Part shown: positions 2,005-5,962 of the stretch, one piece after another | How the letters are laid out: each line of letters begins with the position of its first letter | Position numbering within the stretch: the first letter of the stretch is position 1 | Assembly: GCA_017990865.1 (NCBI GenBank) | Contig: JAGNNB010000036.1 | Span: forward strand, 1-13,249 | Direction: 5' to 3' | Origin: Lysobacteraceae bacterium | Lineage (GTDB): Bacteria > Pseudomonadota > Gammaproteobacteria > Xanthomonadales > Xanthomonadaceae | Length of the DNA: 13,249 bases | Position numbers and translations under genes: made by a program | The notes under the pieces: generated by a model | Told to the model about the DNA's origin: nothing | Seen by the model: the letters and a program-made list of their open reading frames with translations, nothing else | The model's database searches: none

Positions 2005-2059
2005 CAAAAAACGCCGCGCGGATGCGCGGCGTCGGTGGAAGCGCGAGGCAACGCCTCGC
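2005..2059 (-). terminator. Rho-independent terminator after rtcB
   Basis: Reading the minus strand after the rtcB stop, there is first a 7-bp hairpin (2059-2043, GCGAGGC/GCCTCGC with a 3-nt loop), then a perfect 9-bp hairpin (2032-2011, ACGCCGCGC arms, 4-nt loop) followed directly by a T-run (2011-2006). The T-run lies only on the minus-strand side, so this ends the rtcB transcript. Nothing equivalent serves the plus-strand ABC gene. Confidence 0.85.
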
Positions 2060-2071
2060 AAACGTTGGTCC

Positions 2072-3289
2072 TCAGCCCTTGATGCACACCACCTGCCGCA
2101 AGGTGTGGACGACTTCCACCAAATCCCGCTGCGCCGCCATCACCGCGTCGATGTCCTTGTACGCGGCTGGCGATTCGTCGATGACGCCCGGGTCCTTGCG
2201 GCATTCGACGTGCGCGGTCGCCTCGCGGTGCTGCTTCAGCGTGATCTGCTGCTTCGCCGCGGTGCGGCTCATCTTGCGGCCGGCGCCGTGGCTGCAACTG
2301 CAGAAACTCTCGGGGTTGCCCTTGCCGCGCACGATATAACTCTTCGCGCCCATGCTGCCGGGGATGATCCCGAGTTCGCCCTCGCGCGCGCTGACCGCGC
2401 CCTTGCGGGTCACCAGCAACGACTGCCCGAAATGCTCTTCGCGCTGCACATAGTTGTGGTGGCAGTTCACCGCAGTCTTGTCCAACTGGAACTTGGGCAG
2501 GCGCTGGCGCATTTCGTGCAGCACCCGCGCCATCATCGCCTCGCGATTGGCGCGCGCGTAGTCCTGCGCCCACGACACCGCCTCCACGTAATCGTCGAAC
2601 AGCGCTTCGCCTTCCATGAAGAACGCCAGATCGCGATCGGGCACATGGAAACCCAAGGTGCGGCGACCGAGTTCTTCGCGCGCGCGTTCGATGAAATAGC
2701 TGCCGATCAAATTGCCGGTGCCGCGCGAGCCGGAGTGCAGCATCGCCCACACCGTATCGCTTTCGTCGAGGCAGATTTCGATGAAGTGATTGCCGCCGCC
2801 GAGCGTGCCGATCTGCTTGTCGATCTTGTCGGTGCGGATCTTGCGGTGCTTGGCCTTGATCGCATCGAGCCGCGCGACCAGTCCCGACTGCGCCAATCGG
2901 GTTTCGATGCTGTCGGGCAGCTTGCGGTGATCGCCGCCGCCGCCGTTGCCCACCGGCACGCTGCGCTCGATCGAATTGCGCAATAGCGCCAGGCTGTCGG
3001 GCAGATCGTCCGCGCGCAGCGTGGTGCGCACCGCGGCCATGCCGCAGCCGATATCCACGCCCACCGCGGCCGGGATGATCGCGCCGCGGGTCGGAATCAC
3101 CGAACCGACGGTCGCGCCCTTGCCCAAATGCACGTCGGGCATCACCGCGACCCAAGGTCCGACGAACGGGATGGCCGCGATGTTCTGCAATTGCCGGCGC
3201 GCCTCGGGCTCGAGCGGCACGCCGTCCACCCAGCCCTTGATCGGGACGAGGCTGTCTTCGGCGTGAAGAAGTTGGAAGGATGCGTTCAT
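2072..3289 (-). CDS. rtcB: RNA-splicing ligase RtcB
   Basis: GTP- and Mn-dependent RNA ligase that joins a 2',3'-cyclic phosphate or 3'-phosphate end to a 5'-OH end; it repairs cleaved tRNA and other RNA in the cytosol. The 405 aa match the length of E. coli RtcB (408 aa). Visible signatures: DVHLGKGATVGSV (52-64), VGVDIGCG (76-83), GGGNHFIE (164-171), HSGSRG (185-190), CHHNY (276-280), SMGAKSY (312-318) and SHGAGR (333-338). By comparison with E. coli, Asp79, Cys82, His168, His185 and the His277/278 pair are the metal ligands, and His334 is the guanylylated histidine. All are present, so the enzyme should be active. The ATG at 3289 is the first Met of the conserved protein; the open frame extends upstream but with no family similarity. 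It has no strong Shine-Dalgarno. It is the last gene of the minus-strand island and is followed by a terminator. Confidence 0.97.
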   Translation of the reverse strand: MNASFQLLHAEDSLVPIKGWVDGVPLEPEARRQLQNIAAIPFVGPWVAVMPDVHLGKGATVGSVIPTRGAIIPAAVGVDIGCGMAAVRTTLRADDLPDSLALLRNSIERSVPVGNGGGGDHRKLPDSIETRLAQSGLVARLDAIKAKHRKIRTDKIDKQIGTLGGGNHFIEICLDESDTVWAMLHSGSRGTGNLIGSYFIERAREELGRRTLGFHVPDRDLAFFMEGEALFDDYVEAVSWAQDYARANREAMMARVLHEMRQRLPKFQLDKTAVNCHHNYVQREEHFGQSLLVTRKGAVSAREGELGIIPGSMGAKSYIVRGKGNPESFCSCSHGAGRKMSRTAAKQQITLKQHREATAHVECRKDPGVIDESPAAYKDIDAVMAAQRDLVEVVHTLRQVVCIKG

Positions 3290-3340
3290 GGCGGGGTTCC
3301 ATGCGCGGCCCGAATGCGGGCGACGCGAGTTTCGAAGTGT

Positions 3341-3372
3341 AAGCGATGAGTGAAAGCGATGAGTGAAAGCGA
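3341..3372. repeat. 13-bp tandem repeat in the rtcB upstream spacer
   Basis: AAGCGATGAGTGA occurs at 3341-3353 and 3354-3366, followed by a partial third copy (AAGCGA, 3367-3372). It lies in the 109-bp spacer between the unknown gene and rtcB. No hairpin or promoter is obvious there. Confidence 0.8.
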
Positions 3373-5414: not shown

Positions 5415-5812
5415 CGGGGGTTCTCCTTTCGATAAGGCTCTGGTGGTCCGATTCGCATGGGATGAGAACACCGCGCGGGGAATCGGTCGCCGCGGGTTCG
5501 ATCGCATCGCAATCGAAATCGAGATCAAAAATCGCAATCGCGATGCGAGAGAGAAGGTGGAAACGCCTCCGACACCGAGGTCGCGGAACCCGCGCGCGCT
5601 TCGCGCGGGAGCGGCCGCTTCGTCGTCGCACGCGATGCTTTGCGCGCGACGCTTCCGTTGCCGATCCGTGCGCATCGAGGACGCGGATCCGGCGGCATCG
5701 CCGCTGCGTCGTTCCCGCCGCGATGCGCCGTAGCGCGTCGCGACGAACACGCCGCAAGAGGCGTTTCCGTTGGCGGGACTTGCGTCCCGGGGTGACATGA
5801 CGTGACAGGTCA
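5415..5812 (-). other. Structured non-coding stretch between the tRNA-like pair and slipin
   Basis: 398 bases with no convincing gene; the in-frame extension of slipin here is Arg/Ser-rich and unlike protein. Reading the minus strand just after tRNA-like 2, three hairpins follow one another: 5814-5796 (CATGAC arms, overlapping the CCA end), 5789-5774 (CGGGAC/GTCCCG closing a GCAA tetraloop) and 5764-5749 (ACGCC/GGCGT). A stronger 8-bp hairpin lies at 5609-5589 (CCCGCGCG arms). Nearer to slipin the sequence is a looser run of ATCGCAATCG-like repeats (5510-5540). It could be a 3' extension of the tRNA-like transcript, a processing region or a long slipin leader. Confidence 0.55.
5421..5429 (-). 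promoter_or_regulatory. Ribosome-binding site deciding the slipin start
   Basis: The minus strand reads AAAGGAGAA, with GGAG 8 nt before the ATG at 5414. It is one of the strongest Shine-Dalgarno sequences in the window and fixes the slipin start against the much longer open frame. Confidence 0.85.
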
Positions 5813-5886
5813 TGGTTTTTGGAGCGGGAGTCGAACCCGCAACGCTGATATCCAAAATCAGTGCCTAACCGATAGGCGGTCCAAAA
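5813..5886 (-). tRNA. tRNA-like gene 2: Gln-like body, UGG anticodon
   Basis: A 74-nt cloverleaf folds cleanly: acceptor TTTTGGA/TCCAAAA (7 perfect pairs), D arm GCC/GGC with G18-G19 in the loop, anticodon stem CTGAT/ATCAG, loop TTTGGAT, a 4-nt variable loop, T arm GCGGG/CCCGC with a normal TTCGACT loop, A73 and an encoded CCA. The anticodon reads UGG (Pro), but the short D arm and the UUU..AU loop frame resemble tRNA-Gln, and position 37 is A where Pro tRNAs carry G. Position 8 is C instead of the near-universal U. The acceptor is unusually A/T-rich. It starts 3 nt after tRNA-like 1 ends. A gene caller may label it tRNA-Pro(TGG); ordinary decoding use looks doubtful. Confidence 0.8.
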
Positions 5887-5889
5887 CAA

Positions 5890-5962
5890 ACGACGTGCCG
5901 GAATCGAACCGGCGACCCGCGAAGGTTCAGTTCGCTGCTCTACCCGACTGAGCTACCGTCAT
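5890..5962 (-). tRNA. tRNA-like gene 1: GAA (Phe-type) anticodon, no CCA
   Basis: A 73-nt cloverleaf: acceptor ATGACGG/ACGTCGT with six pairs (one G:T) and a G:A mismatch at 7:66, U8-A9, D arm GCTC/GAGC with G18-G19, anticodon stem GCGAA/TTCGC, loop CTGAACC, variable GGGTC, T arm GCCGG/CCGGC with loop TTCGATT. The core contacts (G15-C48, T-loop, U33) are kept. The anticodon is GAA (Phe), but position 37 is C, where a purine is expected, and position 73 is T followed by TTG instead of CCA. It does not resemble a housekeeping tRNA-Phe. It could be a degenerate tRNA, but the intact stems argue for selection on tRNA shape. Confidence 0.75.

What the first reader, a model, noticed from the sequence alone, without database searches (positions are those of the whole stretch)
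2005..5962. RNA-repair island: two tRNA-like genes, slipin, unknown protein, RtcB
Seen: five same-strand elements in a row ending at a clear terminator, with two tRNA-shaped genes at the 5' side. Known: RtcB heals RNA breaks such as anticodon-loop cuts; in Salmonella rtcBA is linked with the Ro protein Rsr and YrlA, an RNA with a tRNA-like module. Inferred: the same logic (ligase plus resident tRNA mimic) is built here from different parts: a slipin scaffold, an uncharacterised protein and two tRNA-like RNAs, with no Rsr, RtcA, archease or RtcR in the window. The RNAs could be decoys for anticodon nucleases, sensors of cleavage, or guides and substrates for RtcB.
Basis: partly seen in the sequence, partly recalled or inferred. 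Interest (0 to 1): 0.85.

Follow-up and report, generated by a model that had tools for sequence, protein, structure and literature searches.

The report
tRNA-mimic leader of an RNA-repair operon
Upstream of a scaffold-protein gene and an RNA-repair ligase gene lies a long folded RNA that carries two fake tRNAs whose anticodon tips change from species to species, which hints that they serve as bait or sensors for tRNA-cutting toxins rather than in translation.

Summary
In detail: on the minus strand lie two abutting tRNA-like modules (A, B), a slipin (SPFH protein), an unknown 257-aa protein, RtcB and a terminator. The modules are not ordinary tRNAs and track slipin: a covariance model of the pair hits directly upstream of slipin in 57 of 61 slipin-bearing family genomes. 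The unknown protein was found in 9 of 66 named loci; rtcB is missing at some. In B the three top acceptor pairs are unpaired in 40 of 65 loci, 61 loops hold 29 anticodons, and the anticodon changes faster than slipin fourfold sites (11 of 16 disjoint pairs, 5.6 expected, P=0.0045). A full 5-bp stem around a 7-nt loop occurs in 8 of 66 A and 55 of 65 B. Both sit in a roughly 1-kb covarying leader with attenuator-like hairpins. The genome also has an rtcR/rsr-yrlA-rtcB locus; RtcR was not found in 24 of 34 slipin genomes. As I recall, Burroughs and Aravind (2016) named an SPFH plus tRNA-like RNA pairing; I could not read it. Bait or sensor for anticodon nucleases is my best, untested reading.

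The parts
6398..6538 (-). candidate leader ORF (46 aa), stop 20 nt before hairpin 1
   Evidence: in 45 of 54 loci I chose by hand an ORF of 32-49 aa that ends 9-20 nt before hairpin 1; substitutions by codon position 88/90/73 give no sign of selection on the peptide; inconclusive
6356..6378 (-). leader hairpin 1 (9-bp stem)
   Evidence: 14 pattern hits in 119 genomes, all 14 upstream of a slipin gene; pattern present in 54 of 67 loci
6315..6346 (-). terminator-like hairpin (attenuator candidate); its 5' arm can instead pair with CCGAGG at the foot of hairpin 1
   Evidence: such a hairpin in 54 of 54 loci with hairpin 1, alternative 6-bp pairing in 51 of 54; no shuffled control was run
5966..6300 (-). 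structured leader block V (limits approximate)
   Evidence: 95.4% of cells paired (30-44% in slid controls), 272 double-change cells against 26-55
5888..5963 (-). tRNA-like module A (ARAGORN Phe, GAA; no CCA; last acceptor pair G-A)
5813..5886 (-). tRNA-like module B (ARAGORN Pro, UGG; encodes CCA; full 7-bp acceptor here, as in only 4 of 65 loci)
5415..5811 (-). structured leader block W up to the slipin start
   Evidence: 90.8% of cells paired (36-39% slid), 468 double-change cells against 71-120
4290..5414 (-). slipin / SPFH (Band_7) protein, 374 aa
3399..4172 (-). unknown protein, 257 aa, accessory
2072..3289 (-). RtcB RNA ligase, 405 aa
2010..2033 (-). intrinsic terminator

Best explanation
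The locus is an RNA-repair operon preceded by a large structured leader RNA cognate to the slipin, with two tRNA mimics built in. Module A is in most species a tRNA shape with its anticodon loop closed off or shortened; module B keeps an open 7-nt loop with a fast-changing anticodon. Shown by sequence: the mimics, their failure to meet tRNA criteria, the covarying leader, the locus-specific attenuator-like hairpins, and the linkage to slipin. Inferred: leader and genes share a transcript; the leader (or a processed piece held by the slipin scaffold) presents tRNA-shaped bait to anticodon nucleases from rivals, phages or toxins; the bait absorbs or reports the attack; RtcB seals cut tRNAs and bait. 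Expression is set by read-through of the attenuator, without RtcR. The anticodon of B changes because the nucleases met by each lineage differ.
For: Linkage; in distant slipins 14 of 16 by relaxed ARAGORN plus 2 by eye. Not decoding: B's top three acceptor pairs all unpaired in 40 of 65 and CCA in 4 of 66, against 7 of 7 acceptor pairs in 32 of 34 and encoded CCA in 34 of 35 housekeeping tRNAs read from a closed relative, which already has tRNA-Asn(GUU), the anticodon of its B. Anticodons: 29 types in 61 loops, U33 in 43 of 61; changed in 11 of 16 disjoint pairs, expected 5.6, P=0.0045, 44% against 14% of sites; without one doubtful pair 10 of 15, P=0.008; the anticodon stem changes at 9% in 65 overlapping pairs. 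Loops: 5-bp stem round 7 nt in 8 of 66 A and 55 of 65 B. T-arm of B invariant or nearly so in the seed alignment. Leader. No RtcR match in 24 of 34 slipin genomes.
Against: No expression, cleavage or binding data; no sigma-70-like promoter was found in 5400-6900. The rate test rests on 16 pairs, and whole-loop exchange could mimic fast change. In the window B is a complete tRNA shape with CCA. A lenient parse (one stem mismatch allowed) gives A a 7-nt loop in 30 of 66, so the closed loop is not universal; where it is closed an anticodon nuclease would hardly cut it, so at most one module is bait. The terminator could simply end a separate short transcript. The leader ORF shows no selection on its peptide. 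The slipin has no clear membrane segment (maximum 19-residue hydropathy 1.43), so 'membrane scaffold' is doubtful.
Confidence: 0.35

Rival explanations
1. Scaffold RNA: the leader or a processed RNA is a structural partner of the slipin assembly, as Y RNA is of Rsr. The tRNA-shaped elbows are docking sites for slipin or RtcB, and the anticodon loops are free to drift because nothing reads them.
For: Nearly invariant T-arm with a variable anticodon arm; RNA kept with slipin when rtcB is gone; large covarying fold; tRNA-like modules before slipins of other families.
Against: Neutral drift predicts a loop rate near that of fourfold sites, but the anticodon exceeds it; B keeps a 7-nt loop in 61 of 66 with A37 in 48 of 61, more tRNA-like than a free loop needs.
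Confidence: 0.3
2. Cis-regulatory element only: the leader, with its attenuator and tRNA-like folds, senses translation or tRNA damage (for instance cutting of B in the mRNA) and sets slipin-rtcB expression; it has no role as a free RNA.
For: Attenuator topology in 51 of 54 loci with hairpin 1; hairpin found only upstream of slipin in 119 genomes; same-strand leader directly upstream; no RtcR match in 24 of 34 slipin genomes.
Against: The leader ORF shows no selection on its peptide; attenuation alone would not need two tRNA folds; no expression data.
Confidence: 0.2
3. Ordinary, xeno- or suppressor tRNAs that happen to lie beside the operon.
For: ARAGORN and Rfam score both above threshold; in the window B has a full acceptor stem and CCA; neither Phe(GAA) nor Pro(UGG) was seen among the other tRNAs read from this 86.5% complete assembly, which also misses several other tRNAs.
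Against: Acceptor, CCA, loop and anticodon evidence across relatives; anticodons differ between close relatives; the pair is tied to slipin across the family.
Confidence: 0.04

Closest known systems
SPFH/Band-7 RNA-repair modules with a 'novel tRNA-like molecule' (Burroughs and Aravind 2016, NAR gkw722; abstract recalled, paper not held)
   Same: SPFH protein, RNA-repair context, adjacent tRNA-like RNA proposed as cognate
   Different: I cannot say whether that paper shows the tandem A+B, the closed loop of A, the fast-changing anticodons, the 1-kb covarying leader, the attenuator or loci without rtcB; none of these is in what I recall.
rsr-yrlBA-rtcBA operon under RtcR (Hughes et al. 2020, PMC7790460, passages seen)
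   Same: RtcB with a resident tRNA-like RNA; the passages suggest that YrlA's tRNA-like domain, itself not cut, could be a competitive inhibitor of the anticodon nuclease
   Different: Here slipin stands in place of Rsr, the RNA is not YrlA (22.8 bits, gathering 69), and RtcR is not adjacent. This genome has both systems.
Pseudomonas aeruginosa PaFlo8 in the rtc locus (PMC13086221, one passage seen)
   Same: SPFH gene inside an RNA-repair locus
   Different: There with RtcA and RtcR; the term tRNA does not occur in the text searched
Large structured bacterial RNAs (GOLLD, ROOL, OLE; recalled)
   Same: Size and multi-domain fold
   Different: The window matches no Rfam 15 family above its gathering score except tRNA; six sub-threshold hits at E 0.27-0.77, one of them YrlA over module A

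Membership tests
Canonical tRNA | 7-bp acceptor stem | tested here: not met
   B across loci: pairs 1-3 all unpaired in 40 of 65; fully paired in 4 of 65 (window, L032, L018, L022); control 7 of 7 in 32 of 34. For the window's own B it is met; for its A one pair is G-A.
Canonical tRNA | 7-nt anticodon loop with a stable identity in close relatives | tested here: not met
   5-bp stem round 7 nt in 8 of 66 A, 55 of 65 B; B's anticodon changed in 11 of 16 close pairs. The window's own A and B have 7-nt loops.
Canonical tRNA | Aminoacylation and decoding | not testable with these tools
   needs charging gels and ribosome profiling
rsr-Y RNA-rtcBA operon under RtcR | RtcB present | tested here: met
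rsr-Y RNA-rtcBA operon under RtcR | Rsr and Y RNA at the locus | tested here: not met
   YrlA 22.8 bits, below gathering 69; Rsr and YrlA (77 bits) lie on contig C26
rsr-Y RNA-rtcBA operon under RtcR | Adjacent RtcR | tested here: not met
   RtcR on C26; on another contig in all 10 slipin genomes that have it, no match in the other 24 of 34
SPFH/Band-7 + tRNA-like RNA module (2016, recalled) | SPFH gene next to a tRNA-like RNA | tested here: met
SPFH/Band-7 + tRNA-like RNA module (2016, recalled) | Same RNA as the one shown in that paper | not tested
   paper not held
Ribosome-mediated transcription attenuator | Mutually exclusive terminator and antiterminator after a translated leader ORF | tested here: inconclusive
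   pairing in 51 of 54 loci, no shuffled control; ORF present but no selection on the peptide

The most novel reading that the evidence does not exclude
A bacterial anti-tRNase bait array: a 1-kb leader RNA, switched on through a translation-coupled attenuator, displays a tRNA shape with a fast-diversifying anticodon beside a loop-closed twin. The anticodon is under diversifying selection from the anticodon nucleases each lineage meets, and RtcB with slipin repairs or turns over what is cut.
Probability: 0.25. Interest if true: 0.92.

Novelty: new variant of a known kind. Interest (0 to 1): 0.72.

Why it matters
The natural substrates and triggers of bacterial RtcB are, to my knowledge, poorly known. 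Here a ligase locus carries its own candidate substrate, with a region that varies fast enough to be read as a record of which tRNAs are attacked. It offers a direct test: does the anticodon of B predict the nuclease that cuts it? It also adds a large structured RNA that, in the Rfam scans run here, matched no family but tRNA above threshold at these loci.

Tried and rejected
Ordinary tRNA pair: judged unlikely. Pair tied to rtcB: rejected in favour of slipin. Unknown protein as a core part: rejected. Regulation by RtcR: unlikely. R1 hits of 60 bits or more away from slipin in the capped list (G196, G147, G018 and a second one in G103) are housekeeping Arg-His tRNA clusters. Slipin genomes without an adjacent hit: G014 (hit on another contig), G119 (contig starts 189 bases before slipin), G128 (leader blocks U and V kept, only B's T-arm left of A+B), G001 (none).

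Rows dropped: 19 of 96 loci as near-duplicates at over 97% slipin DNA identity (L031 among them), and L001 as the window itself. For the leader blocks, nine distant or truncated loci and one without a readable B of the 77 were left out; of the remaining 67, block W used 64 and blocks U and V used 51 of the 54 that match the hairpin-1 pattern. In one search, 66 of 77 were parsed (7 without the B T-arm motif, 1 without a D-arm, 3 where the parser read A instead of B). In one search, 45 of 54 leader ORFs were picked by hand.
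Full report
WHAT IS THERE. The window belongs to a draft genome of 3.45 Mb in 551 contigs, 86.5% complete, of the Lysobacteraceae to judge by its nearest named relatives (Lysobacter sp. MAGs). On the minus strand ARAGORN finds two tRNA-like genes at 5963-5888 (GAA) and 5886-5813 (UGG). They are followed by a slipin (5414-4290), an unknown protein (4172-3399), RtcB (3289-2072) and a terminator (2033-2010).

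LINKAGE. ARAGORN sees one or two tRNA-like genes shortly upstream of slipin in many of them, but none in several Xanthomonas loci. A covariance model of the abutting pair (R1, 28 seeds) hits 65 of 66 sources, 64 over the full model; 21 of the 66 are seeds or near-duplicates of seeds, so 44 of 45 sources outside the seed are hit. In 198 family genomes, 61 have the slipin at E up to 1e-80. In 57 of these 61 an R1 hit lies directly upstream. Of the other four, G014 has it on another contig, G119 is cut by the contig end, G128 keeps leader blocks U and V but only B's T-arm of the pair, and G001 (43% identical slipin) has none. R1 also rings weakly in every genome because it resembles tRNA; the hits of 60 bits or more away from slipin in the capped list (G196, G147, G018, a second one in G103) are the housekeeping Arg-His tRNA cluster. 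A phylum-wide search of 398 genomes gave 17 further slipins at 38-48% identity (L114-L130). One has only 100 nt upstream. Of the other 16, 14 have one to three tRNA-like genes within about 620 nt upstream by ARAGORN at a relaxed threshold, which also makes chance calls inside genes (L127 has three in a row), and the other two (L118, L119) show degenerate modules on reading. RtcB is seen in the fetched stretch in 8 of these 17.

WHAT IS THE CORE. Slipin and the pair persist without an adjacent rtcB in L061, L075, L082 (6 kb downstream seen) and L019 (1.5 kb seen). The unknown protein is found by tblastn in 9 of the 66 named loci and not in the closest relative L031; three loci (L048, L049, L057) have a 500-891 nt gap there without a match. 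In one order-level relative (L134) it lies between rtcB and rtcA next to a Hen1 gene. So slipin plus RNA is the constant unit, RtcB a common partner and the unknown protein an accessory.

THE MODULES DO NOT LOOK LIKE WORKING tRNAs. In module B the three top acceptor pairs are all unpaired in 40 of 65 loci and all paired in only 4, the window among them. CCA follows the discriminator in 4 of 66, again including the window. In a closed relative (G117), of 35 housekeeping tRNAs read from the 30 loci fetched (49 tRNA hits in all), 34 encode CCA and 32 of those 34 have 7 of 7 acceptor pairs; it already has tRNA-Asn(GUU), the anticodon of its own B. B's loop is 7 nt in 61 of 66. Among the 61 there are 29 anticodons; positions 34 and 35 are near random (1.92 and 1.93 bits), U33 is kept in 43 and A37 in 48. 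For module A the count depends on the measure: a full 5-bp stem around a 7-nt loop in 8 of 66 (B: 55 of 65); by minimum free energy a 7-nt loop in 6 of 66 and a 4-nt loop in 37 of 66, with a GNNA tetraloop in 20 of 66 (B: 37 and 1 of 65, no GNNA); with one stem mismatch allowed, 30 of 66 (B: 60 of 65). D-arm and T-arm stay tRNA-like, B's T-arm invariant or nearly so in the seed alignment. The window's own pair is among the most tRNA-like. Against my reading, Phe(GAA) and Pro(UGG) were not among the other tRNAs read from this incomplete assembly, but several other kinds are missing too, and the anticodons differ in close relatives.

ANTICODON RATE. I paired loci by slipin identity alone (disjoint pairs, 88% or more). 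The anticodon of B differs in 11 of 16 pairs, against 5.6 expected from the fourfold-site divergence of the same slipin genes (P=0.0045); 21 of 48 anticodon sites (44%) differ, against a mean fourfold divergence of 14%. Leaving out L048-L057, whose loop limits are doubtful, gives 10 of 15 against 5.2, P=0.008. Over 65 overlapping pairs the figures are anticodon 43%, loop 31%, anticodon stem 9%, fourfold sites 19%. Exchange of whole loops could contribute: between the window and L032 (slipin 96% identical) 6 of the 7 loop bases of A differ while its D- and T-arms are unchanged.

THE LEADER. The pair sits in a longer conserved leader. The block between hairpin 1/terminator and A (V, 51 loci) folds with 95.4% of cells paired and 272 double-change cells, against 30-44% and 26-55 with partners slid by 1-3 columns. 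The block between B and slipin (W, 64 loci) gives 90.8% and 468, against 36-39% and 71-120. Hairpin 1 with the terminator (U, 51 loci) gives 98.8% and 22, against 29-61% and 0-1; these loci were picked by a pattern that contains hairpin 1, so its sameness is partly by construction and its stem shows no double change. The structures were derived from the same alignments, which favours them in percentage paired, and changes inherited by related species are counted more than once; the double changes are still the stronger point. Profile searches find U, V and W in most loci of this order, and U and V (not W) in Solimonas and Panacagrimonas loci, but not in the more distant slipin loci apart from one marginal V hit. 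Rfam 15 gives the window no match above a gathering score except tRNA; six weaker hits at E 0.27-0.77 include YrlA over module A; three other leaders likewise gave only tRNA at E up to 0.1.

CONTROL OF EXPRESSION. The hairpin-1 pattern occurs in 14 of 119 family genomes, once each, and every time upstream of the slipin gene. All 54 loci with hairpin 1 (of 67) have a terminator-like hairpin after it, and in 51 a CCGAGG/CCTCGG pairing can form instead of it (no shuffled control). A short ORF ends just before hairpin 1 (32-49 aa in the 45 of 54 I picked by hand), but substitutions fall evenly on the codon positions (88/90/73), so the peptide is not conserved. No sigma-70-like promoter was found in 5400-6900. 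This looks like an attenuator; that is inference. RtcR matches 16 of 119 genomes and 10 of the 34 slipin genomes among them, in all 10 on another contig than slipin.

THE OTHER SYSTEM IN THE SAME GENOME. Contig C26 carries RtcR (cut by the contig end), Rsr (Ro60 vWA and TROVE), YrlA (77 bits) and a second RtcB; an RtcA lies on C545. The cell thus seems to have two RNA-ligase loci, each with its own tRNA-mimic RNA and scaffold-type protein.

PRIOR WORK. From memory, the abstract of Burroughs and Aravind 2016 names SPFH/Band-7 modules with a 'novel tRNA-like molecule'. The paper is not held; its existence is confirmed by reference lists seen. Hughes et al. 2020 (passages) suggest that YrlA's tRNA-like domain may inhibit the anticodon nuclease. 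PMC13086221 (one passage) notes an SPFH gene in the P. aeruginosa rtc locus. I saw only passages of PMC6514570 and PMC9650030, and listings with abstract starts for all other papers. The searches named under Tried and rejected listed no description of the leader, the closed loop of A or the fast anticodons, but the library is partial.

VERDICT. I favour bait or sensor RNA for anticodon nucleases (0.35), with scaffold RNA (0.30) and a purely cis-regulatory leader (0.20) close behind. No wet data bear on the choice.

Noticed in passing
G000 contig C26 (L100:698-5091): An rtcR / rsr-yrlA-rtcB locus with a second RtcB in the same genome; a further weak YrlA-like hit at L100:2113-2212 (28.5 bits, below gathering).
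   Followed up: partly
L127:1090-1304 (slipin-oriented): Three tandem tRNA-like modules upstream of a slipin-rtcB pair in another family of the class.
   Followed up: no
L107 (G128), about 330 nt upstream of slipin: Leader blocks U and V kept but A and most of B gone, leaving B's T-arm; no rtcB match in the stretch: looks like a natural deletion of the mimics.
   Followed up: partly
L134:1-3325: The unknown 257-aa family lies between rtcB and rtcA, with a Hen1 gene beside them.
   Followed up: partly
window:4290-5414: This slipin has about 145 residues before the Band_7 match, with repeated GL...PG motifs (two by script, a third by eye) and no clear membrane segment (maximum 19-residue hydropathy 1.43; under 1.6 in 67 of 77 relatives).
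   Followed up: partly
L033, about 550-710 nt upstream of slipin: Leader block V holds an inserted stretch with inverted ends that looks like a small mobile repeat.
   Followed up: no
window 1-1985 and 6897-13151: Flanking genes look ordinary: ABC exporter, fasciclin, GDSL lipase, HAD hydrolase, trypsin-like protease with PDZ; an aminopeptidase-like frame near 9387-10770 was not scanned.
   Followed up: partly
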